A stretch of DNA of 54,399 nt. It comes from Actinomycetota bacterium. Lineage in GTDB: Bacteria; Actinomycetota; Actinomycetes; Actinomycetales; Microbacteriaceae. The notes beneath the pieces were generated by a model. The model saw nothing but the letters and a program-made list of their open reading frames with translations. It ran no database searches and was not told the DNA's origin. This document shows positions 8,590 to 49,601 of the stretch, in pieces. The stretch spans positions 1 to 54,399 of the forward strand of contig JAFDWK010000035.1 in assembly GCA_018268515.1 (NCBI GenBank), given 5' to 3'. A program made the translations under genes and the position numbers. The number at the start of each line of letters is the position of its first letter. Position 1 is the first letter of the stretch.

Positions 8590-10926
8590 TCAGCAGGTGG
8601 CCGCGGCGAAGGGCGTGGTCGTCGTGCCGGTGCGTGACGGATCCGCCGGATCGACGCCCTGCACCGAAACGGATCCGGCCGGCAGCGTGGACAGACGCGT
8701 CGTGAAGGTCGCGCTGGTGGCGGCGCCGGGCGCGAGGGCGACCTGCTTGGACCCGTAGGCGCCGGTCACGGTGACCTCGGCCGCGGAGCCATCGAGGTTG
8801 CGCACCGTCGTCACCAGCACCGCCTTGCCCGCCGCGCAGCGGGTGGTCACGGTCGTCTCGATCGCGGGCGGCGCGACCGGGTCGGCCGCGACCGAGGCGA
8901 TGCGATAGCGCTGGCAGTCGTTGTTCAGCACGCTGTACTGGTGCAGGCGGGTGCCGTCGGCGGCCGCGCAGAACGACAGGTCGAGCGTCTTCAGGCTGTT
9001 GCCGTTGCGGAACTCGACGGTGCCGTCGCCGTTCACCAGAACCCGCCAGGTGCTTCCGGTGATGCCGCAGGCGCCCTGCGTCACGGCGATGCTGTCGGCC
9101 GTGGATCCGCCCTGTACGGCGAGGCACTTCGTCGGGGCCGAGGCGAGGTGGATCTCGGACTCGCCGTTCGCCGCCGCGGTGAAGGTCACGCTCTGGCAGG
9201 CGGATCCGGTGTACTCGTGCTGCTGCAGGATCGCGCCGTCGGCACTCGTGCACCCGGGCAGGTCGAACGACTTTCCCGAGGCGATCGACGTCACCGCGAC
9301 CGCTCCCGCCGGGCGCAGCGACCAGTCCTGCACGGCGGCCGTGCCGGGAACCTGCTGCACGACGGCTGCTCCAGCCGCACCGGCTGCTCCGTCGGCGGAG
9401 GCGAGCGCCTTGCCGCTGGTGCGGTTGGTGAGCCGGGACCAGCCGGCTGTCGTGGGCGTGACGCTCCACTGATGGCACCCGGTGGTGCGGAACGCCGACT
9501 GCTGCACCGCGGTCGCGGCCGTCGTCGCGCAGCCCGCCGGCGCGAGCGAGCGCCCACTGACCGCGTTCACGATGCGCAGGTACCCGTCGCCGGTGGTGTC
9601 CATCACGAACCGTGCGCGCGCGGATCCGCAGTCGCCCTGTACCAGCGCCATGTCCTCACCATCGGAGGCGGTCGCCGCGCACAGTCCGGTGCTGCGGTTG
9701 ACCAGGTTCCACCGGCCGCCCTCGACCTGCGCGACGATCGGCGCATTCTCCCCGCTCGGCACGCGCATCGGGGTGCCCGTCGCCTGCGGCACGCCGAAGT
9801 CGGGCTCGCCGTCGGCCGTCCAGTTCACGATCTGGGCCCGTGCGGAGCGCTCCCGCCCGCATCCTCCATCGGCCCGGGCGTTGGCGTGGTACAGGTTCCA
9901 GGTCTCGGTGCCGTCGGGCGAGGTGAAGAAGTCGTTGTGCCCGCTGCCGTACACGCCGTTCGCCTGCGAGAAGACCGGGCCGTCGCTCTTGTGCCAGGAG
10001 GCGGAATCGACCGGATCCCCGCCGGTGTACTCGAGCGTGCCGAGCTGGTAGTCCGCGGTCCCGCAGAAGCTCGCCGAGTAGACGATCCAGGTGCGCCCGT
10101 CCTTCTGCAGCGGGATCGGGCCCTCGTTCACCGGCTGGCCGATCCGCTCCCAGGCCTCGGTCGGCTGGGACAGGATGTTCAGCGGTCCGGTGGCCGACCA
10201 GGGCGTCGACATCCGGGCGATGTAGTCGCTCTGCAGGCCGTCGGGGGCGAATGCCGACCAGGTGATGAAGAGCTCGCCGTTCAGCTGCAGGTAGGAGCCG
10301 TCGATGTTCCAGTCGTCGGTGGGCACCGGGCGGCCCTTGTAGGTGTACGGGCCCATCGGGTCGTCGGCGGCGCTCTCGATCACCTGCAGGTGCTGGGTGC
10401 CGTAGTTCCCCGAGACGCCCATCGTGTACATCAGATACCAGCGCCACCCGTTCGGCCCCTGTAGCCGCTGCAGTTCGGGCGCCCACATGTTGCCGTTGCG
10501 CCCGGCGTTGGTGTCGGAGTAGACGACCACCGGCTTGGTGGTGCCGAGCCCCGCGAGTGTCGGAGCCTTGCGCATCACGACCTTGTTGTCCCAGGTGGTG
10601 GCGACCATGTAGTAGTTGCCGTCGTGGAATTCGATGGTGGGATCCGCCGTGTCGGGGGCGATCGGGTTGGTGAACGTGTCGCCTCCGATCGCCTGCGCGG
10701 TGGGCGCCTGCACGATGCCGGCCGCGGACAGGGCGCCGACGGCGAGCAACGCCACCGTGGCGAGGCGCAGCAGCGCGACCGCACGGACGGCCACCCGCTC
10801 GGACGGGTGCCGCCGTGCGCGGGGTCGGCGCCGCTCCGCGTGGGACGAGCGCCTCTGTGCGCGGGGCGGGCGATGGCGCCGTTGCGGGCGCGGACCGGAG
10901 GCGGGCGCGGGGGCGGTGTCGGTCAT
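8590..10926 (-). CDS. Exported GH43 arabinofuranosidase with ricin-type domains and shared C-terminal domain
   Basis: About 778 residues. A long basic N-terminal region precedes the hydrophobic signal segment LLRLATVALLAVGALSAAGI. The GH43 beta-propeller spans roughly residues 75-390, with the expected triad D95 (TADPTI), D209 (NIDGSYL) and E268 (VNEGPI). The 114- and 59-residue spacings resemble exo-1,5-alpha-L-arabinofuranosidases of subfamily 26. Two beta-trefoil (ricin/CBM13) repeats follow, then the Cys-containing C-terminal domain shared by eleven proteins here (8590 to about 8855). I start at ATG 10926 (GGAGA, five bases upstream); an upstream in-frame GTG at 10992 overlaps the operator and is unlikely. 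Probably releases arabinose from arabinan side chains outside the cell. Divergent from the GH30 gene. Confidence 0.88.
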   Translation of the reverse strand: MTDTAPAPASGPRPQRRHRPPRAQRRSSHAERRRPRARRHPSERVAVRAVALLRLATVALLAVGALSAAGIVQAPTAQAIGGDTFTNPIAPDTADPTIEFHDGNYYMVATTWDNKVVMRKAPTLAGLGTTKPVVVYSDTNAGRNGNMWAPELQRLQGPNGWRWYLMYTMGVSGNYGTQHLQVIESAADDPMGPYTYKGRPVPTDDWNIDGSYLQLNGELFITWSAFAPDGLQSDYIARMSTPWSATGPLNILSQPTEAWERIGQPVNEGPIPLQKDGRTWIVYSASFCGTADYQLGTLEYTGGDPVDSASWHKSDGPVFSQANGVYGSGHNDFFTSPDGTETWNLYHANARADGGCGRERSARAQIVNWTADGEPDFGVPQATGTPMRVPSGENAPIVAQVEGGRWNLVNRSTGLCAATASDGEDMALVQGDCGSARARFVMDTTGDGYLRIVNAVSGRSLAPAGCATTAATAVQQSAFRTTGCHQWSVTPTTAGWSRLTNRTSGKALASADGAAGAAGAAVVQQVPGTAAVQDWSLRPAGAVAVTSIASGKSFDLPGCTSADGAILQQHEYTGSACQSVTFTAAANGESEIHLASAPTKCLAVQGGSTADSIAVTQGACGITGSTWRVLVNGDGTVEFRNGNSLKTLDLSFCAAADGTRLHQYSVLNNDCQRYRIASVAADPVAPPAIETTVTTRCAAGKAVLVTTVRNLDGSAAEVTVTGAYGSKQVALAPGAATSATFTTRLSTLPAGSVSVQGVDPADPSRTGTTTTPFAAATC

Positions 10927-14100: not shown

Positions 14101-14771
14101 CCCCGGTCGTCGAGGTGCCGCTGGGCGGCGTGCCCGCCGACGCCGTGCGGGTGGTGCTGAACGCCCGGGCGGCGACGCACATGATCGTCTCCGAGGTCGA
14201 GCTGTACGCGATCGCCCCCGGGGTGTCGACGGTCGCCGACCTCGCCGCCGTCACGCTGGACGGGGTCGCCCTGCCCGGCTTCGCCTCCGACACCACCGCC
14301 TACACGGTGCCGTGGACCTCGTCGATGCTCCCCGTGGTGCGCGCGGTGCCGACCGACAACGCCGCGAAGGCGACGATCGTGCAGCCCGCGTCGGACAACG
14401 ACCGCACCGCGAGCATCGTGGTGACGGCAGCCTCCGGGGCGACCCGCAGCTACACGATCGCCTTCCCGGAGCAGGAAGGGCCGCGGCTGGATGCGACCGT
14501 CGAGACCACGGCGCGTTGCGTCGCCGGCAAGGCGCAGCTGGTGCTGACCGTCGCGAACACCGGCGATGCCGCGGAGGACGTCACCGTGAGCACCGCGTAC
14601 GGCGTGAAGACCTTCGCCGACCTCGCGCCGGGCGCCCGCACCTCCGCGGCACTGGCCACCCGACGGGCGGCCTACCCGGCCGGTGCGATCCGGGTCGTGA
14701 TCGCGGCGCCGGACGGCAGCGCGAACCGTGAGCTGCTTCTCGCCCAGCCGGCCGGAGGCTGCGCGGGCTGA
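11163..14771 (+). CDS. Exported GH30 hydrolase, probable endo-beta-1,6-galactanase, multidomain
   Basis: A 1202-residue protein with signal peptide ALGASALTAGLLVTMAPAAP. Residues about 38-560 are a GH30 (beta/alpha)8 barrel plus beta-sandwich: FEGWGTSLVWFANATGGYPE near the start, likely acid/base E238 in DPFNEPNTNYW and likely nucleophile E349 in WMSEVEGDW. This looks most like the endo-beta-1,6-galactanase branch, which cuts arabinogalactan side chains. Then come a ricin-like trefoil (about 565-710), Ig-like bacterial domains, a discoidin-like carbohydrate-binding domain starting NVAPASTASATF (about 880), a cadherin-like sandwich and the shared C-terminal domain (from about 14490). AAGGTGG lies before the ATG. 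Regulated by the operator at 11123. GH30 is sure; the galactanase call is inferred. Confidence 0.88.
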   Translation: MKSSRRSIAALGASALTAGLLVTMAPAAPSAQAAGTPVTIAPNPAYASEPFEGWGTSLVWFANATGGYPEAVRQDLFDKVFGADGLNLNIARYNIGGGNASDVPSYLRPGGAVQGWWNPDLGLTDAQGAITSSYADRDRYKAAWNGDDPAAYNLDADATQRWWIDALKDKITRWEAFSNSPPYFLTQSGYVSGGIGNGNTEQLSESDMSAFADYLVTVVQHLEATHGIQFSSLDPFNEPNTNYWSTTLGGNGWPTSASRQEGAHIGPARQDAMIKALAARLAEPGTTTQVPISAMDETNPSTFVTDWNGWSAQAKSQVSQLNVHTYGTSDRVVVRDIAKSSDKPLWMSEVEGDWSGTDFDQGNIDNGLGMAGRMVDDLRELERRAWVFWQPVEDAYNMQKVENKNWGSVYVDFDCNAEGTSLRRIAAGEADPTCKVTTNAKFNTVRNFTHYIHPGDTLLPSGNDQTTAAIPASGDGLTLVHVNSDSAEHDVTIDLSRFGAIAPGATVTPIVTTQSSASDPTANALVAGASVAVDAAAKSARITVPAKSVTTLLVTGVSGSSADAPALRDGHSYQLLGVQSGKALAAETDGILLRTGATTSSTAAAQTWTVRSISGEGTDRHRFALQFGDGRFLAESAGGTTLVTATAEQAAADPALQWISSTTDGRTFSILSVSAQRVLDVNGQSTADGARVGLWTSNNGANQRWTLADTQLISVRPVTATTVTGTAPNLPAEARLVYGGGVERTAAVTWDVAGVDWSSPGTRTVAGAGTDLFGAAFQASATVEIGSLGSADPVSLTTYAGAALTGIRAAAPATVPAAVGATGATTPVPVAWDWTGIADAAFANPGVVMVPGTATAANGSVLPARLAVIVTVPSTTNVAPASTASATFTESSSYGVDRTKNGVTNDKGWSNWRSGTKNTQDTLTYTLAQRERMQSAKLYFYKDGTSNSWPQSLSVEYRTGDGAWTSAGSVDVPVPADGTAPVVEVPLGGVPADAVRVVLNARAATHMIVSEVELYAIAPGVSTVADLAAVTLDGVALPGFASDTTAYTVPWTSSMLPVVRAVPTDNAAKATIVQPASDNDRTASIVVTAASGATRSYTIAFPEQEGPRLDATVETTARCVAGKAQLVLTVANTGDAAEDVTVSTAYGVKTFADLAPGARTSAALATRRAAYPAGAIRVVIAAPDGSANRELLLAQPAGGCAG

Positions 14772-14818
14772 TCCGCAGTCCGTCGCACCACCTCGACCCC
14801 TGTGGGAAAGGACCACCG

Positions 14819-16469
14819 ATGAAGACCATTCCCGTTCCCGACCCGGTGTCGGGCGGCCGTGCACGGCGTCCGCGCCGGCGCGCGGCGCTCGCCGCGACCG
14901 TGGTCGGCCTGATCGCGGCAGGGGCGCTGGCGGCCTCGCCCGCCGCCGTCGCCGCCCCGACGGCGCCATCGCCTCGTACACCTTCGACGACGGCACGCTG
15001 CTGACCCAGGCGGGGCGTTCGGTCAGCTCGCCGACGTGTCGCTGGCCGACCCCTCGGTGCTGAAGACCGCGCCGTTCGCGAACGCCGCCGACCGCACGGT
15101 GGTGCTGCCGGTGCAGAGCGGCACCGACGTCACCGCACTCGCGCCCACCTTCGCGGCGGCCGACGGCGTCACCGTCTCTCCGGCCTCCGGAACACCCGTC
15201 GACCTGACGAACCCGGTGACCTACACGCTGACCGCGCCCGGCGGATCGACCACCGCGTGGACGATCTCAGCGCAGGTGGTGAAGACCCCGGTGCTGCCGG
15301 GCCTGTACGCCGACCCGAACATCGCCGTCTTCGGGGACACCTACTATCTCTACGCCACCACCGACGGCACGCCGGGCTGGGGTGGCAAGGACTTCTACGT
15401 CTGGTCGTCGAAGAACCTCGTGGACTGGACGCGCGCGGAGCAGCCGTTCCTCACGCTCGACGGTGCGAACGGCAACGTGCCGTGGGCCACGGGCAACGCC
15501 TGGGCGCCGACGATCATCGAGCGCGGCGGCAAGTACTACTTCTACTTCTCCGGGCACAACCCCACCTACAACCGCAAGACGATCGGGGTCGCCGTGGCGG
15601 ACAGCCCGGTCGGGCCGTTCGTGGCGCAGCCCACCGCGATGATCCTGAACAACGAGGCGGTCACCTCGGGGCAGGCGATCGACCCCGCCGCGTTCCTCGA
15701 CCCGCAGACCGGCAAGTACTACCTGGCCTGGGGCAACGGCAGCCCGGTGATCGCCGAGCTCAACGACGACATGATCTCGGTCAAGGCCGGCACGTTCCAG
15801 CGGATCAACGGCCTGACCGACTTCCGTGAGGGCGTCTTCTTGAACTACCGCGACGGGATCTACCACCTCACCTACTCGATCGATGACACCGGATCCGAGA
15901 ACTACCGTGTCGGCTACGCCACCGCGACCAGCATCAACGGGCCGTGGACCTACCGCGGTGTGATCCTGCAGAAGAACCTCGCGCTGGGCATCAAGGGCAC
16001 CGGGCACAGCTCGATCATCAACGTGCCCGGCACCGACGACTGGTACATCGCCTACCACCGGTTCGCGATCCCGGACGGCGAGGGCCAGCACCGCGAGACC
16101 ACGATCGACCGGGTGCCGATCGGCGCCGACGGCCTGTTCCAGACGATCACGCCGACACTGACCGGTGTGGCGCCGCAGACGATCGCGGGGGCGGCGCCGG
16201 TCTCGGCCGCGGCCACCACCCGGTGCGCGGCGGGCAAGGCCGTGGTCGTGGTGACCGCGACGAACACCGGCGAGAAGGCCGTGACCGTGCGGCTCGCGAC
16301 ACCGTACGGCACGAAGGACGCCGTCGCGCTGGCGGCGGGCAAGAGCGCGAGCACCACGTTCGCGACCCGTGCGGCACAGGTGGATGCGGCGACGGCCACG
16401 GTCTCCGGCGAGATCGCCGGCGTGCCGTTCGCGGTGACGACGGCGGTGCCCGCGGCGACCTGCGGCTGA
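14819..16469 (+). pseudogene. Exported GH43 enzyme, N-terminal region frameshifted twice
   Basis: A start with a GGAAAGG ribosome site at 14819 gives a clear signal peptide (AALAATVVGLIAAGALAAS). The continuing protein is then split over three frames: ASYTFDDGTLL follows in a second frame from about 14955, and FGQLADVSLADPSVLKTAPF in a third from about 15010. Each step equals loss of one base. The rest is intact: an Ig-like segment, then a GH43 propeller with ADPNI (Asp at 15312), IDPAAF and FREGVF as the three acidic motifs, then the shared C-terminal domain. Without the signal peptide the product from an internal GTG (15036) would stay inside. Either a real recent pseudogene or two sequencing/assembly errors. 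It follows the GH30 gene by 47 bp, so it is in the same transcript. Substrate probably arabinan or arabinogalactan. Confidence 0.75.
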
Positions 16470-23047: not shown

Positions 23048-23133
23048 CGGGACTCCTTCGTCGTTCGTCCGGATCCGGTCGGGGAGTGCGGATCACGGTG
23101 TGCGCCCGGTGGGCGGTTACGGGACAGGGCTGA

Positions 23134-23147
23134 TGTTAGCGGACACA
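23134..23147. promoter_or_regulatory. LacI-type operator upstream of the minus-strand GH43 operon
   Basis: TGTTAGCGGACACA matches the consensus TGTTAGCGSTAACA in the left half and most of the right. It lies 87 bp before the start at 23047 in a divergent intergenic region. No convincing -35 box is seen on the minus strand. Confidence 0.55.
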
Positions 23148-35871: not shown

Positions 35872-35922
35872 GTCCGGGAGCAGCGCTCGCCGCAGAGCGC
35901 CGCCCTCGAGAGGATGGACGAC

Positions 35923-38900: not shown

Positions 38901-41421
38901 GCCGTCTGTGCAGGCCTGGGTGAAATCGGGCGTGCCGATCCCTGGCCAGGCCGACCTCGTCGGCGTCGTCAAGGACGATGGACTGCCCTCCGGTGCGCTC
39001 AGCGCGCAGTGGAGCGTGGTGTCCGCGCCCGAGGGTGCGCTGGCGCTCTTCGACGCGGCGACCTCGCCGTCCACGACGGTGCGCTTCACCGCCGACGGCG
39101 ATTACACGCTGCGTCTGACCGCCACCGATGGCGAGCTGACCACGTCGGCCGACCTGGTGGTCGCCGGTTCCGTCGCCGCGCAGGGCGTCAACGTCGCCCC
39201 GGCCGCCACGCCGACCGCGGAGTACACCGCGGGCTGGAACAACGTCAACGCCGTCAACGACGGCAAGGTCGTGTTCTCCGGCGGTCAGCAGACCGACCTG
39301 TGGGGCACCTGGTCGGGCGACCACCCGTCGACCCGGTGGATCCAGTACACCTGGCAGAAGCCGGTGCGCATCGACGGCACCGAGGCCTCGTTCTGGTCCG
39401 ACCAGACCAGCGCCTCCTCGTCGAACGGCGTGAACGTGCCGAAGTCCTGGAAGGCGCAGTACTGGAACGGATCAGGATGGTCTGACGTGACCGGCGCCAG
39501 CGCCTACGGGGTGGCCCGCACCGAATCGAATCTCACCACGTTCGACCCGGTCACGACCACGCGCCTGCGCCTGGTGCTCAGCGCTGCGGGGAACAACCCC
39601 TATGCGGCCGTCGGCGTCAGCGAATGGCGGGTGTTCGCCGAGGCGCCGACCGCGATCGAGTCGATCGACGTGCGCACCGCCGTGGGAACCCTGCCGACGC
39701 TGCCCGACCGGGTGGACGCGATCTACGCCGACGGCAGCCGTTCCGCCGAGCCCGTGGCCTGGGGGCCGGTGGCGGCCGAGCAGGTCGCGACCGAGGGCGG
39801 GTTCGACGTCACCGGCATCGTGGCCGGATCCCGAGTACCGGCGAAGGCGTCGGTCTGGGTGCGGGCGACCGCGCCGGGGCAGATCAACGCCGTGGATCCG
39901 GTGACGGTGCGCACCCGCACCGGCACGGCTCCACAGCTGCCGGCTACCGTCGGCGTGCTCTACAACGACGGCTCCCGGGAGGACCTCGCGGTGACCTGGG
40001 ACGCGGTGGAGCCGGCGAAGTACTCCTCGGATGGCGTCTTCACGGTGACCGGCGCGGTGCAGACCGCGATCGCCGGTGTCAAGACGGCCACGGCGACCGT
40101 GACCGTCGGCGACGGCGGCTCGGACGGCCCTGACACCACGGCGCCCGTGGCGACCGTGGCGATCGCCCCCGACGCGCCGGCCTCCGGCTGGCACGGCGGC
40201 GCGGTGCAGGTCACGGCCGCGGCGACCGACAACCGGGATCCGGCCCCGCGCGTGGAGGTCTCCATCGACGACGGCGCCTGGACGGCCTATGCCGCCCCGG
40301 TCTCCGTGACCGCCGACGGCGCGCACACCGCACGGGTGCGGGCGACCGACGCCGCGGGCAACGTCTCCGCCGTGGCGTCCGCCGACTTCCGCATCGATGC
40401 CACCGCTCCGGCGGTGACGGCGGAATCGGATCCGGTGGCGCGGACCGTGAAGGCCGCGGCGACCGACGCCGGATCGGGGGTCGCCGGGATCGAGTACCGC
40501 ATCGGCACCGACGGCGCCTGGACCGCCTACACCAAGACGATCCTCGTCGACGTGACGACACAGACCGTGCAGCTGCGGGCCCGCGACAAGGCCGGCAACG
40601 TCAGCGCGCCGCAGAGCGTGGAGCTGCCGGACGGCACGGCCGATCATCGCCGCAACGTGGCGCTGATCGCCGGCGCGACCGCCTCGTTCTCCGCCGGGTG
40701 GAACAGTCCGAACGGCCTGAACGATGACGTGCGGCCCACCTCCTCCGGTGACGTCGCCCCGAGCGACAACGCCCAGGTGTGGGGCGCGTGGCCGCAGATC
40801 TCGGAGCAATGGGTGCAGTACGACTGGGCGACGCCGATGAGCATCGACAGCACCACGGCGTACTTCGTGCACAACCTCGATGCCGCAGGCCTCGGGATCG
40901 CCGCCCCGAAGAGCTGGAAGGCGCAGTACCGCGACGCGGCCGGCCAGTGGGCCGACGTCACGGGCGCCTCCCCGTACACGACCGAGGTGGATGTGTTCAA
41001 CGCGGTCTCGTTCGACGCGGTGACCACCACCGGCCTCCGGCTGGTGCTGCAGGCGCAGGGCACCGAGGAGGGCAAGGGCAGCCTCGGGATCAAGGAGTGG
41101 CAGGCGTTCGAGGTGGCGGGCACGGCTCCGGCTCTGCCACTGATCGCCGAGGTCACCGCGCGCTGCGTGGCGGGCAAGGCGGTGCTGGTCGCCACCGTGC
41201 GCAACACCGGCGGATCCCCGGTCGCGGTCGCGATCGACGGCACCTACGGCACGAAGTCGATCCCGGAACTCGCGGCCGGAGCCTCGGTCTCGCAGGCCTT
41301 CAGCACCAGGCTGGCGAGCATGCCCGCCGGCGCGATCGGGGTCTCGGTCACCGGGCAGGTCGACGGCCACCAGGTCACCGAGAAGCGCCAGGTCGCCTAC
41401 GCGGCGCACCCGTGCTCATGA
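35923..41421 (+). CDS. Very large exported (alpha/alpha)6-barrel glycoside hydrolase with binding domains
   Basis: About 1830 residues. Signal peptide (LIAAIGALAVIGSCAVALPA). Residues about 35-770 look like a six-hairpin glycosidase related to the MGH1/GH63-type fold: RWWAQNVPYLDTPEDNIDKT, FPTSMEGVLGYNNSIVLTTG, EYNWGAMTGNDADAVSFHWK and LPDQNEFWSDGSADPQKIGY. The family is not clear; size, layout and GH127 neighbours recall the GH121 beta-L-arabinobiosidase of bifidobacteria. After it come a discoidin-like domain (LAEGKTATASFSASG), a PKD/Ig-like domain, a second discoidin-like domain, two Ig-like domains, an OmpL47/Y_Y_Y-like pair, a third discoidin-like domain and the shared C-terminal domain ending HPCS. 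GTG 35923 has AGAGGA eight bases upstream; ATG 35914 is the alternative. First gene of the operon. Confidence 0.75.
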   Translation: MDRNTPRSRTRALIAAIGALAVIGSCAVALPAQAANTDIGYPVFSGSANPVPDTGVAYTPGNQLQAIFDADVAAGAGTSVEKDFWMDRMLVRTGTAGSFDDNNQWLFTRGRAAFMKTHTPGTLGFAGQLAYWEAIDGRDGYTITARVGGADVPLTEDTAQRKQTPSYWRSVHRNAAQGITVVQTKFITDANVLVTELEVTATGGAKTVTLRATSPYAATAEGDELVGTVAALNNLTTIHPRLSGDGFAPDGAALTRTLEVPAGGSVAAKVQLGLVTDEIPASRTEYDTVRATAPADAYTAHVTAYNRWWAQNVPYLDTPEDNIDKTLYYRWWLMRFNFLDADIPGNDYQFPTSMEGVLGYNNSIVLTTGMFIDDLKYFRDPIYSYGPWVSAGETSKSSKYVDNPGDPANWSNSYTQYISEAAWRSYQLHGGPTAIADNLAGYAEDDVKGLVAAYDGNHNGLIEYNWGAMTGNDADAVSFHWKPGNQDRAENAYLYSNALASAKAYRLAGKADKAAEMDAFAQNIKKKVLEVLWNPEDKLIEHAMANTGEHVPWKETNNYFPFTVGLMPKPGDADYDDDYVQALRLWADDAQYPIFPFYTANQADKAASAAAGEAGSNNFSVINSTVTFRMLASVLRDYPTDAINAEWYKKLLYWNAWAHYQNGGDNRLPDQNEFWSDGSADPQKIGYRSWIHHTILGATNFTMIEDAMGLRPRDDAKIELNPIDIDWDHFTANNIRYRDRDLTVTWDQPGDGKRPYGDAVPEGYSVFLDGALAFTVDTLGKVVYDPATGTVETADGVHVTSATASSVQAPQDVRFGDDARVVDLFAKAGADIASASTGSANLAEGKTATASFSASGRAPSGAVDGTTINEPFWGTAGSPNAQDSITIDLGGPQTFDDARVYFYRSSSSATVAGYAEPALYTVEYRSGGEWHPVPDQARAPAMPRANLNRIQFPEVTGDAVRVTVNHAAGMKTGIKEVQVFRTGIEAPAGTNQAPSVQAWVKSGVPIPGQADLVGVVKDDGLPSGALSAQWSVVSAPEGALALFDAATSPSTTVRFTADGDYTLRLTATDGELTTSADLVVAGSVAAQGVNVAPAATPTAEYTAGWNNVNAVNDGKVVFSGGQQTDLWGTWSGDHPSTRWIQYTWQKPVRIDGTEASFWSDQTSASSSNGVNVPKSWKAQYWNGSGWSDVTGASAYGVARTESNLTTFDPVTTTRLRLVLSAAGNNPYAAVGVSEWRVFAEAPTAIESIDVRTAVGTLPTLPDRVDAIYADGSRSAEPVAWGPVAAEQVATEGGFDVTGIVAGSRVPAKASVWVRATAPGQINAVDPVTVRTRTGTAPQLPATVGVLYNDGSREDLAVTWDAVEPAKYSSDGVFTVTGAVQTAIAGVKTATATVTVGDGGSDGPDTTAPVATVAIAPDAPASGWHGGAVQVTAAATDNRDPAPRVEVSIDDGAWTAYAAPVSVTADGAHTARVRATDAAGNVSAVASADFRIDATAPAVTAESDPVARTVKAAATDAGSGVAGIEYRIGTDGAWTAYTKTILVDVTTQTVQLRARDKAGNVSAPQSVELPDGTADHRRNVALIAGATASFSAGWNSPNGLNDDVRPTSSGDVAPSDNAQVWGAWPQISEQWVQYDWATPMSIDSTTAYFVHNLDAAGLGIAAPKSWKAQYRDAAGQWADVTGASPYTTEVDVFNAVSFDAVTTTGLRLVLQAQGTEEGKGSLGIKEWQAFEVAGTAPALPLIAEVTARCVAGKAVLVATVRNTGGSPVAVAIDGTYGTKSIPELAAGASVSQAFSTRLASMPAGAIGVSVTGQVDGHQVTEKRQVAYAAHPCS

Positions 41422-42222: not shown

Positions 42223-45200
42223 ATGGCCCGGCACCCCCGGCTGTCCCTCGCCGCGCTCGCGGCAGGGGCGGCCGCCATCCTGATCGGCGCGCTGCTGCCG
42301 GTCACCGCGTCCGCCGAGACGCACAACCCCCTGATCGGCGACGGATCCGTGTACTCCGCGGATCCGACGATGATCGTCGACGGCGACACGCTCTACATCC
42401 ACACCGGGCGGGACGAGGCCGGTCCCACCACCAACGACTTCGTGATGAACGAGTGGCAGGCGTTCTCGACCACCGATGTCGACTCCGGATCCTGGGACTT
42501 CCACCCCTCGTTGATGCGGCCGGAGACGGTGTTCTCCTGGGCGGACCGGGGGCGCGCCTACGCCGGACAGGTGGTCAAGGGTGGGGACGGCCGGTTCTAC
42601 TGGTACGTCCCGATCAGCGAGAAGGCCGCGACTTCGGCCGACAAGTTCGCGATCGGCATCGCCGTCTCGGACACCCCGCTGGGGCCGTGGACCGACTACG
42701 CGGGTGGCCCGATCGTGTCGCAGCAGATCCTGGGCAACGACGTGCACAACATCGACCCGACCGTGTTCGTCGATGATGACGGCTCGGTGTGGATGTACTG
42801 GGGCAGCTTCGGGAGGCTGCTCGGGGTTCAGCTCGACGCAGACATGAAGACGCTCAAGGGGGCCCCCACCGCCATCACCAGCGGGGTCGGCGGATACTTC
42901 GAGGCGCCGTGGCTGTTCAAGCGCAACGGCACGTACTACCTCGCCTACGCCGCGAACAACGCCGGTCCCGCCAGCGACTGCACCCCGGCGAACTACCACG
43001 CCTGCATCGCCTACTCCACAGCGTCCAGCCCGCTCGGCCCGTGGACGTACCAGGGCCGGATCCTCGCCCCGGTGTCGTCGACGACCAGTCACCCCGCGAT
43101 CGCCGAGTTCCAGGGGCAGTGGTACATGGCCTACCACACCGCCGATGCGGCGGGCGGCAACCACTTCCGGCGCTCTGTCGCGATCGACCGCGTGGAATGG
43201 GATGACACCCAGACGCCGGCCCGGATGAAGGAGGTCGTGACCACCCCGGCGCACGGCCCCGATCTCACCCCGCGCTCGAACGTGGCCCCGTGGGCCACCG
43301 TCTCCGCGTCGAACGAGCCGGTGCCCACGCAGTACTGGATCGCCGCGCTCAACGACGAGGTCGTGCGCCCCAACCCGCTGCCGCCGGACATGTGGGGCAG
43401 CTGGTCGGCGTCGCGTCCCGCGCAGCAGTGGATCCAGTACGACTGGACGCAGCCGGTGCGGGTGGACAGTGCGCGGATCAAGTTCTGGCGGGACACGCCG
43501 CCCGGCACCGGTGACGGCGTCGCCGACCCGGCGTCCTGGGTGCTGCAGTACTGGGATGAGGGCCTGTGGAAGGACGTGCCGAACCCGAGCGGCTACCCCA
43601 CCTCGACCACCGCGGTGCAGAGCGTGTCCTTCGACGCGGTCACGACTTCGCGCCTGCGCGCGGTGCTGAACGCCGCGCCGAACGCCGCCGCCGTGCCGCA
43701 GTACTCCGCGGTCGCCGTGGAGGAGTGGGAGGTGCACGCCGTGCAGCCCGACGCCGTCGAGCCGGTCGCCGTGACCACCGAGGTCGGCGTGCAGCCCGAC
43801 CTGCCCGAGACCGTGACGCTCGGCTACGGCGCCGAGCAGCTCGCCGCCCCGGTGCGCTGGGATGCGGTGGCGGATGCCGACCTCGCCGCGCCCGGAGTGC
43901 GCACCGTGACCGGTTTCGTGCCGGGCTACGCGGCCGGCCGCGTCACGGCCGAGGTCACCGTCGGCGAGCACACCCCGCCGGACGGTCCCGACACCACGGC
44001 GCCGGTCGTGACGCTGACGCCGACCGGCATCGCGGGCGGATCCGGCTGGTACGTCTCACCGGTGAGCATGCGGGCCACCGCGAAGGACGACCGCGATGCA
44101 CGCACCCGCATCGAGGTGTCCGTCGACGACGGCGCCTGGCAGGCGACCGAGAACGCGCGATCCGTGGACGTCGCGCTCGCCGCTGACGGCACGCACGCGG
44201 TGCGTGCCAGGGCGACCGACGCCGCGGGCAACGTGTCGCAGACGACCGCCGCCGAGGTGCGCATCGACACCGTGAAGCCGAAGCTGACGGCCACGCTCGA
44301 CGTCGTCGCGCGCACGGTCTCCGCCGAGGCCTCGGACGGCGGCTCGGGCGTGGCCGCGGTCGAGTACGCGATCGATGCGACCAGCGGATGGCAGGCCTAC
44401 ACGGGTCCGGTCGCCGTCGACGGCGAGCGGCACGTGGTGTACCTGCGCGCCCGCGACGTCGCCGGCAACGTGTCGGCGCTCAGCGGCACCAGCGTCCCGC
44501 TGTCGCCGGACGCGCCGCTGCACGGCAACATCGCGTCGATCGCCACCCCGACCGCGTCGTACACCACCGGGTGGAACAGCGTGACGGCGGTCACCGACGG
44601 CGCCCTGGACGGCGCCTCCTGGGGCACCTGGCCCCGGGTCGGCGAGCAGTGGGTGCAGCTGGAGTGGGACCGGGTGGTGACGCTCGACCGGGCCGGCGTG
44701 ATGTTCTTCCGCGACCAGCCGGATGCGGCCGGGGCCGGGATGATCCCGCCGCGCACCTGGAAGCTGCAGTACCAGGATCCGGCATCCGGCGCTTGGATCG
44801 ACGTCGCAGCCTCCGGCGAGTACGGCCGCTCCTCCACCGCCGTGAACGAGGTCTCGTTCGCGCCCATCACGACGACCAGGCTCCGTGCGCTCATGCAGTC
44901 CTGGGGCGCGGCCGAGGCCGGCGGTTCCAGCGGGATCCTCGAGTTCCAGGCCTGGGCAGCCGAGACCCCGGCACCGGCGCTGGACGCCTCGATCACGGCG
45001 ACCACCCGCTGCGTCGCCGGCACGGCGAGCCTCGTCGTCACGGCGGCGAACGGCTCCCCGGTGCCCGTGTCGTTCGCGGTGACCACCGCATACGGCACCA
45101 AGACGCTCGGCGCGCTCGGTGCCGGCCGGTCCACCAGCCACGCATTCGCGACCCGGTCCACCTCCATCGCGGCCGGCGCGGTGACCGCGGTGGCGACCGG

Positions 45201-45267
45201 TGAGATCGACGGGGCACCCGTGTCCCGCGAGCTCGTCGCCGCCTTCGACGCCCGCAGCTGTGGCTGA
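42223..45267 (+). CDS. Exported GH43 enzyme with discoidin and Ig-like domains and shared C-terminal domain
   Basis: 1014 residues. Signal peptide (LAALAAGAAAILIGALLPVT); GH43 propeller about 40-345 with D47 (SADPTM), D178 (NIDPTVFVDDDGSVWMYWG) and E227 (YFEAPWLF) as the expected triad; discoidin-like carbohydrate-binding domain about 350-510 (SNVAPWATVSASNE); Ig-like about 515-585; a two-part OmpL47/Y_Y_Y-like region about 590-755; second discoidin-like domain about 765-910; shared C-terminal domain ending RSCG. GAAGGAG six bases before the ATG. Unlike the LamG-containing GH43 proteins, the catalytic domain is N-terminal and the domain tail matches the large hydrolase and the non-catalytic protein in this operon. 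Likely an extracellular alpha-L-arabinofuranosidase. Confidence 0.85.
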   Translation: MARHPRLSLAALAAGAAAILIGALLPVTASAETHNPLIGDGSVYSADPTMIVDGDTLYIHTGRDEAGPTTNDFVMNEWQAFSTTDVDSGSWDFHPSLMRPETVFSWADRGRAYAGQVVKGGDGRFYWYVPISEKAATSADKFAIGIAVSDTPLGPWTDYAGGPIVSQQILGNDVHNIDPTVFVDDDGSVWMYWGSFGRLLGVQLDADMKTLKGAPTAITSGVGGYFEAPWLFKRNGTYYLAYAANNAGPASDCTPANYHACIAYSTASSPLGPWTYQGRILAPVSSTTSHPAIAEFQGQWYMAYHTADAAGGNHFRRSVAIDRVEWDDTQTPARMKEVVTTPAHGPDLTPRSNVAPWATVSASNEPVPTQYWIAALNDEVVRPNPLPPDMWGSWSASRPAQQWIQYDWTQPVRVDSARIKFWRDTPPGTGDGVADPASWVLQYWDEGLWKDVPNPSGYPTSTTAVQSVSFDAVTTSRLRAVLNAAPNAAAVPQYSAVAVEEWEVHAVQPDAVEPVAVTTEVGVQPDLPETVTLGYGAEQLAAPVRWDAVADADLAAPGVRTVTGFVPGYAAGRVTAEVTVGEHTPPDGPDTTAPVVTLTPTGIAGGSGWYVSPVSMRATAKDDRDARTRIEVSVDDGAWQATENARSVDVALAADGTHAVRARATDAAGNVSQTTAAEVRIDTVKPKLTATLDVVARTVSAEASDGGSGVAAVEYAIDATSGWQAYTGPVAVDGERHVVYLRARDVAGNVSALSGTSVPLSPDAPLHGNIASIATPTASYTTGWNSVTAVTDGALDGASWGTWPRVGEQWVQLEWDRVVTLDRAGVMFFRDQPDAAGAGMIPPRTWKLQYQDPASGAWIDVAASGEYGRSSTAVNEVSFAPITTTRLRALMQSWGAAEAGGSSGILEFQAWAAETPAPALDASITATTRCVAGTASLVVTAANGSPVPVSFAVTTAYGTKTLGALGAGRSTSHAFATRSTSIAAGAVTAVATGEIDGAPVSRELVAAFDARSCG

Positions 45268-45301: not shown

Positions 45302-47614
45302 ATGACCCCCATCATCGGATCCGGCCTGTCCCGACGGCAGATGCTCGTCGGCGGCGGACTGACACTGGCCGGCATGGCTGCGGCCGTGGCGGTGATCGAC
45401 CCCGCCCGCGCGTTCACCGCCGACGCGGTCGCCACTCAGGACGCCGCCGCGTTCCGCGTTCCCGGCACCGCGCGCACGGCCGCGTCGGTGATCGCCGAGC
45501 AGACCGCGGTCTACCCCGACCTGTGGACGGTGCGGCCGTTCTCGCTCTCCTCGGTCACGCTCGGCCAGAGCGTGTTCACCCGCGCACAGCAGCAGCACCT
45601 CGTGCTTTACCGCGCCTACCCCGTCGACCGGATCCTCGCGGTGTTCCGGCGCAACGCCGGACTGCCCACCGGCGGCGCCAACCCGCCCGGCGGCTGGGAG
45701 GAGTACGGTCCCAACCCGGAGCCGCAGCGCTGGGGGCCGCGCGAGTATGTGCGCGGCAAGAATGCCGCGGGCGCCGGAGGGCTGTTGCGCGGGCACTACG
45801 GCGGGCACTTCCTCAGCGGCATCTCCATGGCCTACGCCTCCACCGGCGAGCAGGCCCTGCTCGACAAGGTGAACGCCATCGTCGCCGGCCTCGACGAGTG
45901 CCGCACCGCGCTGGCCGCGCAGGAGTACGAGGGCTCCCCGCGGTACTCGCACCCGGGCTTCCTCTCCGCCTACGGCGAGTGGCAGTTCTCCGCGCTCGAG
46001 GAATTCGCCCCCTACGGTGAGATCTGGGCGCCGTACTACACGCTGCACAAGATCCTCGCCGGGCTGCTGGACGCGCACGCCCTGGCCGGGAACGCGAAGG
46101 CGCTGGAGCTGGCCGAGGGGATCGGGCACTGGGTGCACAGCCGCCTGTCGAGGTGCACTCCGGCGCAGCTCGCCCGGATGTGGGGCTCCTACATCGCCGG
46201 CGAGTACGGCGGGATGAACGAGGTGCTCGTCGAACTGCACTGGCGCTCGAGCGACCCGCAGAAGGACGAGTTCCTCGCGGCGGCGAAGCTGTTCACGCTG
46301 CAGACCCTCGTGGATGCGTGCGCGAGCGGCACCGACACGCTCGACGGCAAGCACGCCAACCAGCACATCCCGCAGTTCCCCGGCTACATCAAGCTCGCGG
46401 CGGCGACCGGCGATGCGCATTTCCTCGATGCGGCGCGCGGGTTCTACGACATGGTGGTGCCGGGGCGCGCCTACGCGCACGGCGGCACCGGCGAGGGCGA
46501 GCTGTGGGGCCCGGCGAACACGGTGGCGGGCGACATCGGCCCGCGCAACGCGGAGTCCTGCGCGGCCTACAACATGCTCAAGGTCGCCAGCTACCTGTTC
46601 TTCACGGGACAGGATCCGAAGTACATGGACTACTTCGAGCGCACGGTGCTCAACCACATCCTCGGCGGGCGCCGCAACCAGGAATCGACCGCGGGGCCGG
46701 AGAACCTCTACATGTTCCCGGTCAACCCGGGCGCGCGCAAGGAGTACGGCAACGGCAACATCGGCACCTGCTGCGGCGGCACCGGTCTGGAGAGCCACGT
46801 GAAGTACCAGGAGGGGATCTATTTCCGCTCCGCCGACGAGCGGCACCTGTACGTGAACCTCTACATCGCCTCCACGCTCACCTGGGCCGAGACCGGCCTG
46901 GTGCTGGAGCAGACCTCCTCCTACCCGGAGGGCGACACGTCGACGCTCACGGTGCGCAGCGCGCCGAGCGGGCCGCTCACCATGCACCTGCGCATCCCCG
47001 GATGGTCCACCGGCGTCGAGCTGTTGGTCAACGGCGCGCCCGCAGGGGTCGAGGTCGTCGCCGGACAGTACGCCGCGATCGAGCGCTCCTGGGTCGAAGG
47101 CGACACCGTCACGATCCGGATCCCGCTGGCACTGCACGCGGAGGGCACGATCGACCGGCCCGACATCCAGGCGCTCATGTACGGACCGGTGGTGCTCTCG
47201 GCGACCAGCTCCGCGACGAGCTATCTGAAAGTCTCGCTTGCGAACCGGCTGGGCCTCGCCGGCAGCATCACCCGCGGGGTGTCCAAGACCGCGGCCAACG
47301 TGTTCACGATCGGCGGGCTCACCTACGAGCCCGCGTACAACGGAAAGGACGTCGCGTACCACATGTACTTCCAGCGCAACGAGCCCACGGTCGCCTTCGC
47401 CGGCGAGGACTCCGGCGTCGCCAACCCGAAACGGGCGGGCCGCACGCTCCTGGACGAGGTGTGGGCGCGGGCGCCGTTCGCGTCGCGCTCGGCATTCCTC
47501 GGATCCGTGTCCGAGGTGACCGGGTCCTACCTCGGCGACGGACTGCTCTCCGCGCGCAACCGCCAGCGGATCCTGCTCGCCGCAGGGCGTGCCCCGATCG
47601 ATGCGGAAGCCTGA
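45302..47614 (+). CDS. GH127 beta-L-arabinofuranosidase, Tat-exported
   Basis: 770 residues. The N-terminus MTPIIGSGLSRRQMLVGGGL is a twin-arginine signal, so the protein folds, probably with its metal, before export. The rest is a GH127 (DUF1680) (alpha/alpha)6 barrel with beta-domains: EYGPNPEPQRWGPREYVRGK near the start, E418 and C420 (NAESCAAYN), and C490-C491 (GTCCGGTG). These match the zinc ligands and Cys nucleophile of the bifidobacterial GH127 enzyme. It releases L-arabinose from beta-linked arabinofuranosides such as those on hydroxyproline-rich plant proteins. It is the only exported enzyme here without accessory domains or the shared C-terminal tail. The next gene, 28 bp downstream, encodes just such accessory domains. 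AAAGGA precedes the ATG. Confidence 0.9.
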   Translation: MTPIIGSGLSRRQMLVGGGLTLAGMAAAVAVIDPARAFTADAVATQDAAAFRVPGTARTAASVIAEQTAVYPDLWTVRPFSLSSVTLGQSVFTRAQQQHLVLYRAYPVDRILAVFRRNAGLPTGGANPPGGWEEYGPNPEPQRWGPREYVRGKNAAGAGGLLRGHYGGHFLSGISMAYASTGEQALLDKVNAIVAGLDECRTALAAQEYEGSPRYSHPGFLSAYGEWQFSALEEFAPYGEIWAPYYTLHKILAGLLDAHALAGNAKALELAEGIGHWVHSRLSRCTPAQLARMWGSYIAGEYGGMNEVLVELHWRSSDPQKDEFLAAAKLFTLQTLVDACASGTDTLDGKHANQHIPQFPGYIKLAAATGDAHFLDAARGFYDMVVPGRAYAHGGTGEGELWGPANTVAGDIGPRNAESCAAYNMLKVASYLFFTGQDPKYMDYFERTVLNHILGGRRNQESTAGPENLYMFPVNPGARKEYGNGNIGTCCGGTGLESHVKYQEGIYFRSADERHLYVNLYIASTLTWAETGLVLEQTSSYPEGDTSTLTVRSAPSGPLTMHLRIPGWSTGVELLVNGAPAGVEVVAGQYAAIERSWVEGDTVTIRIPLALHAEGTIDRPDIQALMYGPVVLSATSSATSYLKVSLANRLGLAGSITRGVSKTAANVFTIGGLTYEPAYNGKDVAYHMYFQRNEPTVAFAGEDSGVANPKRAGRTLLDEVWARAPFASRSAFLGSVSEVTGSYLGDGLLSARNRQRILLAAGRAPIDAEA

Positions 47615-47642
47615 GATGTCCCGGACGGTTGAGAGGAACACC

Positions 47643-49601
47643 ATGCGCACACTCGCCTCCGGTCGCACCCCGGTGCGCCGGATCGCCACGGCGATGGCGG
47701 CGGCGCTCGCGCTGCTCGCCGCCGGGGCCACGGCGCTGCCGGCCGCCGCCGCGGACGAGCGGATCAACGTGGCGCTGGCCTCCGGCGAGAATGCGCCGAC
47801 GACCGAGGTCAGCTACGTCACCGGCTGGAACTCGGCGGCGGCTCTGAACAACGGCGCGACGGCCGCGACGAACACCTACACGCAGATGTGGGGCACCTGG
47901 GGTGCGCCGGGGAATCCGGCCCAGGACACGGCGTCGTACACCTGGGAGCGCCCGGTCACGGTCAGCTCGTCGACGCTGTACCTGTGGCAGAACCACCTCA
48001 CCGGCGACTCCGGGGTGATGCTCCCCTCGGCGTGGTCGATCCAGTACCGCACCGCGGCGGGGGAGTGGGCGCCGGTGACCGGTGCGTCGCTGTCGTACCC
48101 GCTGCCCGTGCTGGATCAGGCGGCACCGGTATCGTCGCTGCCCCCGGTCAAGGCGGACTTCGACGCGGTGACCACGACGGGCGTGCGCCTGGTGCTGGAC
48201 CGCGCCGTGGTCGGCGGTGAGCGCAAGGCCACCAGCGTCATCGAGTGGCAGGTGTGGGGCGTGCACGCGCCGGAGACCGGGCCGGGCCCGGATTCGGCGG
48301 CGTTCCTCGACGTGCAGAAGCCCGCGGTGCGCACCGTGACCGGCACGGCGCCGTCCCTGCCGGCCGAGGTGTGGGCGATCGGCGAGGACGGGCCGCTGGT
48401 GTACGTGCCGGTGGACTGGGCCGACGTCGCCCCGTCGAGCTTCGCGGCACCGGGTGCCTTCGAGGTGACCGGATCCCTGCGCGGCCACGACGGCGAGAAG
48501 ACGACCGCGACCGTGCACGTCGCGGATGCACCTTCGACCGAGATCCGCTCGCTGGGGTACTCCGCGACCATCACCACGCCCGGTGCCGCCCCGGTGCTGC
48601 CGCGCGAGGTGCGGGCGCGCTTTGCCGACGCCACCGAGGGTGACGTCCCGGTGACATGGTCCGCGATCGAGGCGCCGCAGTACGCCGAGGCGGGCATGAT
48701 GTTCGACGTCTCCGGGGCGGTCGAAGGCTTCGCCGGCGCCGCGGTGGCGACGGTGTTCGTCGTGGAGCCCGCGGGCGCGAGCGCCCCGCTGGTCTCGATC
48801 GGCCTCGACGCGGCGCCGGAGGGGTCGGGCTGGTACACGGCCGCGCCCACGGCGACGGTCACCGCGGAGTCCGCGGGGGCGATCCGCAGCGTCGAGTACA
48901 GCCTCGACGGCACCACCTGGAAGCCGTACGGCGAGCCGTTCGCGGTGGACGCGCAGGGTGAGATCACCGTGCACGCCCGGGCGACCGACGCGGCCGGCGC
49001 AGTCGGCGAGGCCTCGGAGACGGTCAGGGTCGACACGGTGGCACCGGTCACCGGGGTGTCCTTCGACGTCGTCGGCGGATCCTCGGCGCGGGTCACGCTG
49101 ACCCCGACCGACGCCGAGCCCGGGTCCGGGGTGACCCGCACGGTCTGGTCGGACGGACCCGACTCCTCGCCGACCGGCGAGGCGAACAACATGTACGCCA
49201 CATACGAGGCGCCGTTCTCGGTGCAGCTCACCGAGGAGCCCCGCTACGTGCACGTGCAGACGCAGGATGCCGCGGGCAACGTCGAGCGGTACGTCACGGT
49301 CGAACTGCCCGCGCGCGCCGCGGGCGCGCTCGCGCTGGACACCTCGGCCACCGGCCGGTGCGTGGCGGGCAAGGCGCAGCTGGTGGTGACGGTGAGGAAC
49401 ACCGACACCGCTGCGGCCGACGTCGAGCTCACCACCCCGTACGGGAGCAAGACGGTGGCCCTGGCGCCCGGCAAGGGCACATCGAGCGCCTTCAGCTCCC
49501 GTGCCGCGCAGTTCGCGGCAGGCCAGATCACGGTGTCCGGCTCGGCCGGGGACCGCAGCTACACGGGCTCGCTCGGCTACGCCGCCGTGACCTGCGGCTG
49601 A
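47643..49601 (+). CDS. Exported non-catalytic binding protein: discoidin, Ig-like and shared C-terminal domains
   Basis: 652 residues. Signal peptide (ATAMAAALALLAAGATALPA); discoidin-like domain about 45-220 (VSYVTGWNSAAALNNGATAA); two Ig-like domains about 225-390 (VRTVTGTAPSLPAEVWAIGE); OmpL47/Y_Y_Y-like pair about 395-555; shared C-terminal domain ending VTCG. I see no catalytic domain. This order equals the C-terminal half of the large hydrolase and of the GH43 at 42223, but here it is a separate protein right after the Tat-exported GH127. ATG 47643 with GAGAGGA upstream is preferred to the in-frame ATG 47589 inside the previous gene. It probably binds carbohydrate and may work with GH127. 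Confidence 0.78.
   Translation: MRTLASGRTPVRRIATAMAAALALLAAGATALPAAAADERINVALASGENAPTTEVSYVTGWNSAAALNNGATAATNTYTQMWGTWGAPGNPAQDTASYTWERPVTVSSSTLYLWQNHLTGDSGVMLPSAWSIQYRTAAGEWAPVTGASLSYPLPVLDQAAPVSSLPPVKADFDAVTTTGVRLVLDRAVVGGERKATSVIEWQVWGVHAPETGPGPDSAAFLDVQKPAVRTVTGTAPSLPAEVWAIGEDGPLVYVPVDWADVAPSSFAAPGAFEVTGSLRGHDGEKTTATVHVADAPSTEIRSLGYSATITTPGAAPVLPREVRARFADATEGDVPVTWSAIEAPQYAEAGMMFDVSGAVEGFAGAAVATVFVVEPAGASAPLVSIGLDAAPEGSGWYTAAPTATVTAESAGAIRSVEYSLDGTTWKPYGEPFAVDAQGEITVHARATDAAGAVGEASETVRVDTVAPVTGVSFDVVGGSSARVTLTPTDAEPGSGVTRTVWSDGPDSSPTGEANNMYATYEAPFSVQLTEEPRYVHVQTQDAAGNVERYVTVELPARAAGALALDTSATGRCVAGKAQLVVTVRNTDTAAADVELTTPYGSKTVALAPGKGTSSAFSSRAAQFAAGQITVSGSAGDRSYTGSLGYAAVTCG

What the first reader, a model, noticed from the sequence alone, without database searches (positions are those of the whole stretch)
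8590..49601. Unnamed C-terminal domain shared by eleven exported proteins
Eleven proteins of different catalytic type (GH43, GH30, GH127-type, large six-hairpin hydrolase, non-catalytic) end in one ~85-residue domain. All have RC(V/A/T)AG(K/T) at the start, then VTVxNxxxxxxxVTVxTxYG-like strands, a G-x-(S/T)-x-S-x-x-(F/L)-x-(T/S)R turn, often PAG, and a Cys one to three residues from the C-terminus. Approximate starts: minus strand 8855, 17290, 20340; plus strand 14490, 16195, 25720, 29965, 35390, 41137, 44980, 49330. Both Cys are kept in all eleven, which suggests a disulfide joining first and last strand of an Ig/CARDB-like sandwich. It is always the very last domain, as expected of a sorting, retention or substrate-binding tail, yet there is no LPXTG or transmembrane helix. 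I recognise no named family.
Basis: partly seen in the sequence, partly recalled or inferred. Interest (0 to 1): 0.88.

Follow-up and report, generated by a model that had tools for sequence, protein, structure and literature searches.

The report
Docking tail for surface enzyme complex
Eleven secreted proteins of one bacterial gene cluster, mostly sugar-degrading enzymes, end in the same small unnamed domain, which in related genomes usually sits beside genes for a wall-anchored protein platform; it may be a snap-on tag that holds many enzymes on the cell surface.

Summary
Confirmed: eleven proteins end in one ~85-residue domain with both cysteines in 11 of 11. The genome's other match is partial and borderline. 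No strong Pfam, NCBIfam or PDB match. AlphaFold2 gives a seven-strand sandwich, pLDDT 97.7. In fetched loci it is C-terminal in 220 of 222; cysteines occur as a pair (203) or not at all (14) of 217.

New: mid-cluster lie three genes resembling the Lactobacillus csc/WxL surface complex: free WxL-like protein, WxLIP/DUF916-like membrane protein, LPLTG stub. In 100 same-genus WxLIP loci the WxL-like domain was free (42 loci, tails within 10 kb in 41) or fused to a large protein's C-terminus (52, tails in 2), mixed 2, not found 4. Of 299 same-family genomes all 18 with a free-type match have tails, but 20 others have tails without it.

Best reading: the tail replaces the covalent enzyme-WxL link and docks many enzymes on one wall-anchored platform. 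Linkage, fold and paired cysteines are supported; binding is inferred. The free form is one clade, so loci are not independent.

The parts
8593..8871 (-). tail of GH43 / ricin-B-lectin protein (ORF 8590-10992)
14484..14768 (+). tail of 1202-aa protein (ORF 11163-14771; ricin-B, Big_4, F5/8C; GH30C only at E=0.19)
16191..16466 (+). tail of GH43 protein (ORF 15036-16469; no signal peptide in this frame)
17050..17310 (-). tail of LamG / aBig_2 / GH43-like protein (ORF 17047-19938)
20069..20341 (-). tail of aBig_2 protein with sub-cutoff GH43 match (ORF 20066-23047)
25704..25967 (+). tail of LamG protein (ORF 22902-25970; signal peptide begins at the Met some 135 codons in)
29967..30251 (+). tail of GH127 protein (ORF 26100-30254), the tailed gene just upstream of the WxL-like gene
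35379..35654 (+). tail of LamG / aBig_2 / GH43-like protein (ORF 33009-35657)
41131..41418 (+). tail of 1835-aa protein with MGH1-like glycoside hydrolase match (ORF 35914-41421)
44977..45264 (+). tail of GH43 protein (ORF 42223-45267)
49326..49598 (+). tail of 670-aa Big_4 protein without a catalytic match (ORF 47589-49601)
30768..31421 (+). standalone WxL-like secreted protein, 218 aa, no Pfam match; proposed platform protein (CscB-like slot)
31529..32569 (+). WxLIP/DUF916-like protein, 347 aa, PF06030 23.8 bits (cut-off 27.3), C-terminal hydrophobic helix; the only such match in the genome at E<=0.001 (CscA-like slot)
32566..32838 (+). 91-aa protein with V-x-I-x-V-x-I strand, LPLTG, hydrophobic stretch and R-rich end; Gram_pos_anchor 18.1 bits (cut-off 20) (CscD-like slot)
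45302..47611 (+). GH127 protein with a Tat-like leader (read by eye) and no tail; a cluster member outside the tail set

Best explanation
The tail is a disulfide-stapled Ig-like docking module that keeps many secreted enzymes and lectin-like proteins on the cell surface by binding a wall-anchored platform encoded among them: a free WxL-like protein, held by a WxLIP/DUF916-like membrane protein and a sortase-type stub. In sister loci the same WxL-like domain is fused directly to the C-terminus of the large protein; in the tail system that fusion is split, so one platform can serve many tailed proteins, as cohesins serve dockerins. Supported by calls: domain, C-terminal position, paired cysteines, predicted fold, conserved linkage, complementary architectures. 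Inferred: that the tail binds the platform, which platform protein it binds, and surface retention itself.
For: (1) 220 of 222 tail domains with a stop in view end within 12 residues of it. (2) Of 100 same-genus WxLIP regions, tails lie within about 10 kb in 41 of 42 with a free WxL-like gene, 2 of 2 mixed, 2 of 52 fused, 1 of 4 with none found; 17 of the 60 genomes hold both kinds. (3) In 299 family genomes, 37 of 39 strong (>=133 bits) WxL-like matches have a listed tail within 10 kb, 27 with a same-strand tail <=800 bp upstream; all 18 genomes concerned have tails. (4) The same neighbourhood is seen in named records of Frigoribacterium, Glycomyces and a Bifidobacteriaceae MAG (tail beside WxLIP-like in the last). 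(5) Tails sit on unrelated enzymes: GH43, GH127, GH95, GH53, phosphatase, amidohydrolase, PQQ propeller (44 of 83 eligible proteins scanned). (6) The best-conserved residues concentrate at one inferred pole (2.42 vs 1.49 bits; 2 of 91 circular shifts as large). (7) All eleven window tails have computed pI 8.0-9.2; the 14 WxL-like proteins carry net charge -14 to -29. (8) The 10-row WxLIP clade holds nine tailed loci, in which all 12 scored tails are Cys-less; among the other 32 tailed rows only one tail (of seven in L115) is. (9) The genome has one sortase match and two LPXTG-anchor matches, one of them this stub.
Against: No binding, localisation or complex prediction was done. All free-type loci form one WxLIP clade (100/100), so they reflect one origin kept by descent and transfer. 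25 of 65 tail-bearing genus genomes lack a WxLIP of the tail type, and 15 of the 65 lack any WxLIP match at E<=1e-5; 20 of 38 tail-bearing family genomes lack a strong free-type match. One genome (G122, L139) has free WxL-like, WxLIP and stub but no tail; L136 and L141 have a WxLIP of the clade but neither; L247 has the WxL-like gene without a tail in 20 kb; L245 has three tails in a row without the set. Tail and WxL-like or WxLIP profiles show no significant relation. 20 of 94 tails are net negative.
Confidence: 0.62

Rival explanations
1. The tail is a carbohydrate-binding module that tethers the enzymes to their substrate; the wall platform is merely co-regulated with a polysaccharide-utilisation cluster.
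For: Eleven copies lie in one cluster of GH43, GH127 and lectin-type proteins; one of 94 members gave a weak CBM_35 match (best E 0.00078); terminal CBMs are common (recalled).
Against: Tails are also on phosphatases, an amidohydrolase and a PQQ propeller. Trp, a usual glycan-stacking residue (recalled), occurs in 6 of 94 tails. The linkage follows the WxL-like architecture: fused loci, which also carry esterases and GH30 enzymes, had tails in 2 of 52. Many tailed proteins already have lectin or CBM domains.
Confidence: 0.17
2. The tail binds another envelope component (peptidoglycan, a secondary wall polymer or a different protein) and the WxL-like set is a separate surface device of the same lifestyle.
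For: Tails occur in genomes without the set: 20 of 38 in the family sample, and at L245 three in a row. Tails are basic while walls carry anionic polymers (the latter recalled).
Against: Tails without the set are mostly single and weak; of 37 genus genomes with a tail below E=1e-20, 35 have the tail-type WxLIP, and the two without are 88% and 81% complete. It does not explain the free/fused complementarity.
Confidence: 0.16
3. The tail is a folding or protease-protection cap without a specific partner, spread with enzyme genes by duplication.
For: Compact fold with paired cysteines at its two ends.
Against: Conservation is concentrated at one inferred pole, and a cap needs no linkage to a surface-protein operon.
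Confidence: 0.05

Closest known systems
Csc clusters of Lactobacillales (CscA-D; Siezen et al. 2006, PMC1534035: abstract and two sections seen)
   Same: DUF916-type membrane protein, small acidic WxL-slot protein, very short LPxTG protein and large multidomain secreted proteins with a shared C-terminal domain, some ConA-like; proposed there as a surface complex for plant polysaccharides.
   Different: Here the large proteins end in an 85-residue Cys-paired domain instead of WxL2, eleven serve one set, the small protein lacks both Trp-x-Leu motifs, and the host is an actinobacterium.
WxLIP / DUF916-DUF3324 (Hassan et al. 2023, PMC10599100: part 1 of 4 and passages seen)
   Same: Secreted Ig-like domains plus C-terminal membrane helix beside WxL-type genes; 347 aa against 337-365 there.
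   Different: PF06030 match is under the cut-off (23.8 vs 27.3 bits).
Cohesin-dockerin cellulosomes (recalled)
   Same: One receptor type, many enzymes carrying one small terminal module, in one gene cluster.
   Different: No dockerin match in the scans; the fold is an Ig-like sandwich, not a calcium-binding helical pair (recalled).
Chaperone-usher pilins (CfaB, FimA)
   Same: Best Foldseek matches of the WxL-like model, whose conserved first strand is unplaced in the monomer.
   Different: Weak: best E 3.5e-3, TM-score 0.37-0.42; model from 14 sequences, pLDDT 82; no chaperone or usher was sought.

Membership tests
WxL domain (is the tail a WxL domain?) | two Trp-x-Leu motifs in about 130-190 residues | tested here: not met
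   Tail is about 85 residues; Trp occurs in 6 of 94 tails; Pfam scan of 94 members lists no WxL family at E<=0.01.
WxL domain (is the tail a WxL domain?) | C-terminal position on large secreted proteins of a DUF916-type cluster | tested here: met
CscB / small WxL protein (window 30768-31421) | small acidic secreted protein beside a DUF916 protein | tested here: met
   218 aa with leader, pI about 4, next to 31529-32569.
CscB / small WxL protein (window 30768-31421) | two Trp-x-Leu motifs; Pfam WxL match | tested here: not met
   The conserved Trp are in WYV and LGW contexts and the end reads LTLSLFE; 0 of 14 members listed WxL at E<=1.
WxLIP / CscA (window 31529-32569) | PF06030 domain over its cut-off | tested here: inconclusive
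   E=4.7e-5, 23.8 bits against 27.3.
WxLIP / CscA (window 31529-32569) | 320-380 residues with leader and C-terminal membrane helix | tested here: met
   347 aa; leader and hydrophobic helix read by eye.
CscD short LPxTG protein (window 32566-32838) | 90-140 residues, LPxTG, hydrophobic helix, basic end | tested here: met
   91 aa, LPLTG; Gram_pos_anchor 18.1 bits, cut-off 20.
CscD short LPxTG protein (window 32566-32838) | N-terminal signal peptide | tested here: inconclusive
   None obvious by eye in the window ORF or in several relatives; start codons uncertain.
CARDB (PF07705) | significant Pfam match | tested here: not met
   3 of 94 members at E<=0.01, best E 0.002; full-length protein 14.6 bits against 22.7.
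Dockerin-like function | specific binding to a platform protein | not testable with these tools
   No complex prediction or binding assay was available; only linkage and complementary architecture were shown.

The most novel reading that the evidence does not exclude
A cellulosome-like system of Gram-positive actinobacteria built from other parts: a universal 85-residue disulfide-stapled Ig tail plugs any enzyme into a free WxL-like platform that is an incomplete pilin-type sandwich closed by a donated strand. The donor may be the membrane WxLIP or the sortase-type stub, whose V-x-V-x-V-x-I-x-P strand resembles the unplaced first strand of the WxL-like protein. The system arose once by splitting an enzyme-WxL fusion into a tag and a shared receptor.
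Probability: 0.35. Interest if true: 0.9.

Novelty: new variant of a known kind. Interest (0 to 1): 0.74.

Why it matters
Csc/WxL clusters were proposed in 2006 as surface complexes for plant polysaccharides (PMC1534035, sections seen). Here up to a dozen enzymes of one cluster share a tag next to the presumed receptor genes, and sister loci show the same platform domain fused directly to enzymes. That makes the idea testable with two or three small soluble proteins, would name a domain that sits on many secreted enzymes (220 distinct terminal examples in the loci held here), and could give a modular display tag for actinobacteria.

Tried and rejected
Named-domain search: Pfam, NCBIfam and PDB profiles gave only weak hits. 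The best Pfam hit was PLipase_C_C in 7 of 94 at E<=0.01, best E 5.6e-4. The PDB match to a designed Ig (E 7.2e-5 with 11 rows) fell to E 0.27 with 94 rows and was dropped as compositional.

Tail as a shrunken WxL domain or a copy of a WxLIP domain: profile comparisons gave probabilities of 0.4 and 1.5 percent; not supported.

Tail cysteine as a mixed-disulfide anchor: rejected. The cysteines come as a pair, a whole subclade lacks them, and the stub's Cys pair is absent from many relatives.

'Enzyme-WxL intermediates' L238-L240 turned out to be free WxL-like proteins with a longer linker.

Mantel test of WxLIP against nearest-tail distances: r=0.53, 0 of 5,000 permutations as high. I give it little weight because linked genes inherit together. 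The strict Cys test of that call misjudged a few offset tails; one search replaces it. In one search one tail (protein 6) was cut wrongly; its pI is taken.

Searches use Fisher tests that ignore shared descent; the p-values (5e-23, 1e-18, 6e-18) are not probabilities for independent events. The cut-offs (220 bits; 133 bits; E<1e-65) were set after seeing gaps in the lists. Free/fused was assigned by a signal-peptide pattern and spot-checked on 13 loci; the 39 matches were not each checked.

Rows dropped: three of 100 loci (L149, L152, L185) from the tree; three N-terminally cut tails from the Cys count. Of the WxLIP matches listed the 80 best after the window's own were all fetched, then 20 picked from the rest.

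Full report
WHAT IS THERE. Eleven ORFs end in one domain. Aligned, they share 12 invariant columns, among them R11-C12, A14-G15 and C90, at 41-49% identity to the first. Shuffled C-termini never match (0 of 2,200). The bodies are diverse: GH43 (8590, 15036, 42223; weaker at 17047 and 33009; below the cut-off at 20066), GH127 (26100), an MGH1-like hydrolase match (35914), LamG alone (22902), ricin-B/Big_4/F5-8C (11163) and Big_4 only (47589). A second GH127 gene, 45302-47611, has a leader that looks like a Tat signal and no tail. In the whole 3.7-Mb assembly (96% complete) the only other match at E<=0.01 is partial, 18.3 bits.

NO NAMED FAMILY. Each of 94 tails was scanned against Pfam: at E<=0.01 only scattered weak hits (PLipase_C_C 7, CARDB 3, DUF7407 2, and CBM_35, Big_9, DUF5719 1 each; best E 5.6e-4). 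NCBIfam with the eleven: six unrelated single hits, best E 0.0018. PDB by sequence with 94 rows: best E 0.012, a ribosomal protein. AlphaFold2 from the 94-row alignment: pLDDT 97.7, pTM 0.86, seven strands. Foldseek against PDB: no match at E<=0.001; the best are Ig-like domains in unrelated proteins.

POSITION AND CYSTEINES. In the loci held at that stage, 224 distinct tail domains were found, never two in one ORF. A stop is in view for 222; 220 end within 12 residues of it. The exceptions are one internal domain (L152) and one apparently broken frame (L125). Of the 220, three are cut at the N-terminus; of the other 217, 203 have both cysteines (one found by eye at a shifted position), 14 have neither, none has one. 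Paired gain and loss is what a disulfide predicts. The Cys residues lie at the end of strand A and just after strand G.

THE NEIGHBOURS. Between tailed genes lie 30768-31421 (218 aa, secreted), 31529-32569 (347 aa, C-terminal hydrophobic helix, PF06030 E=4.7e-5, under the cut-off) and 32566-32838 (91 aa, LPLTG, hydrophobic helix, Arg-rich end, Gram_pos_anchor under the cut-off). PF06030 has one match in the genome, this one. The genome has one sortase and two LPXTG-anchor matches, one being the 91-aa stub. The set has the make-up of csc clusters: CscA with DUF916 and a membrane helix, CscB small and acidic, CscC large with a C-terminal domain, CscD a very short LPxTG protein (PMC1534035, section 8). 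Its authors proposed a surface complex for plant polysaccharides (section 15). WxL proteins are reported mainly from Lactobacillales and Bacillales (PMC9772566 section 3.2; PMC10599100).

LINKAGE TEST. With the window's WxLIP-like protein 72 of 149 same-genus genomes match at E<=1e-5, often several times. I fetched 20-kb regions around 100 matches: the 80 best after the window's own, plus 20 of the rest. Of the 47 scoring >=220 bits, 44 have a tail; of the 53 below, two. The neighbouring WxL-like domain explains the break. It is a free small secreted protein in 42 loci (tails in 41), fused to the C-terminus of a large protein in 52 (tails in 2), both in 2 (tails in both) and not found in 4 (tails in 1). 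Five of six fused proteins scanned are esterases or GH30-type with clear scores, and the sixth is GH30-type too. Seventeen of 60 genomes hold both kinds. A wider sample of 299 same-family genomes gave 38 with tails in 17 genera and 39 strong WxL-like matches in 18 genomes: 37 of 39 have a listed tail within 10 kb, 27 a same-strand tail at most 800 bp upstream, and all 18 genomes have tails. In a phylum sample of 396 genomes six have tails, all in the window's family; named records add Oerskovia, Glycomyces, Tessaracoccus and a Bifidobacteriaceae MAG.

LIMITS OF THAT TEST. In a tree of 97 WxLIP sequences all free-type loci (with the four unassigned) form one clade, support 100/100. The association is therefore one origin kept through wide divergence, not many independent events, and Fisher p-values overstate it. 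Counter-examples are told: 20 of 38 family genomes and 25 of 65 genus genomes have tails without the partner, mostly single weak tails but including four tails in G014 and three in a row at L245. L139 has the set without a tail, L247 the WxL-like gene without a tail, and L136 and L141 a WxLIP of the clade with neither. L241 and L242 have weak Cys-less tails 2-3 kb from a fused-type set.

SUBTYPES MATCH. A 10-row WxLIP clade (99/93) contains nine tailed loci; all 12 tails scored there lack both cysteines. In the other 32 tailed loci of the tree only one tail (one of seven at L115) does. L152, not in the tree, also has a Cys-less tail. Genome G058 carries both subtypes, each with its own set.

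HOW IT MAY WORK. Where the fused protein carries its WxL-like domain covalently, the tailed protein carries the tail and the WxL-like protein is separate. The simplest reading is that tail binding replaces the covalent link. The body does not determine the tail: 44 tailed proteins (of 83 eligible, one per locus) include GH43 (13), LamG (17), GH127, GH95, GH53, metallophosphatase (3), amidohydrolase, PQQ propeller and phosphodiester glycosidase. Window tails are basic (11 of 11, pI 8.0-9.2), the WxL-like proteins strongly acidic (14 of 14), but 20 of 94 tails are net negative.

THE PLATFORM. The WxL-like model (pLDDT 82, 14 sequences) leaves its first 23 residues below pLDDT 50, although they hold the invariant V-x-V-x-I strand. 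Its best PDB matches are pilins assembled by strand donation, but with TM-scores of only about 0.4. A sortase-type stub was found by pattern near 27 of 44 free-type loci (23 with a V-x-V-x-V strand) against 2 of 52 fused-type. In Firmicutes AlphaFold2 places a WxLIP strand into the WxL sandwich (PMC10599100, passages). Strand donation by the stub is my speculation.

VERDICT. I found no paper describing it in the searches (open-access library only). The one paper naming both WxL and Microbacterium mentions DUF916 as a neighbour of another domain (PMC12537917, passages).

Noticed in passing
window 14760-15120: The ORF 15036-16469 lacks a leader; a signal-peptide-like stretch and a LamG-like stretch lie just upstream in two other frames, so the gene is either broken or the draft has errors there. 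Not mended.
   Followed up: partly
window 45302-47611: A GH127 enzyme inside the cluster has a Tat-like leader and no tail; whether Tat substrates generally lack the tail was not tested.
   Followed up: no
window 32566-32838; stubs at L117, L119, L120, L128, L131: Several LPXTG-type stubs show no obvious N-terminal signal peptide, only a short N-terminus, the V-x-V-x-V-x-I-x-P strand, the motif and a hydrophobic helix: possibly leaderless sortase substrates.
   Followed up: partly
window 30268-30350: About three direct copies of a CGAGGCTTTCGATGGATCCGGATCC-like unit lie between the tailed GH127 gene and the WxL-like gene; other loci have other repeated intergenic elements (seen translations).
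   Followed up: no
L139: Genome G122 has free WxL-like, WxLIP and stub genes next to a LacI-type regulator and sugar-transport genes, but no tail at E<=1e-6 anywhere; its large partner, if any, is unknown.
   Followed up: partly
L165, L166, L169, L177, L187, L195: Fused-type loci: esterase (PF00756) or GH30-type enzymes end directly in the WxL-like domain next to the WxLIP gene.
   Followed up: partly
window 49722-50744 and 52068-53363: LacI-family regulator and extracellular sugar-binding protein downstream of the cluster, the usual make-up of a carbohydrate-utilisation locus.
   Followed up: no
window 6515-7759: FAD-dependent oxidase with a D-arabinono-1,4-lactone oxidase domain next to the cluster.
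   Followed up: no
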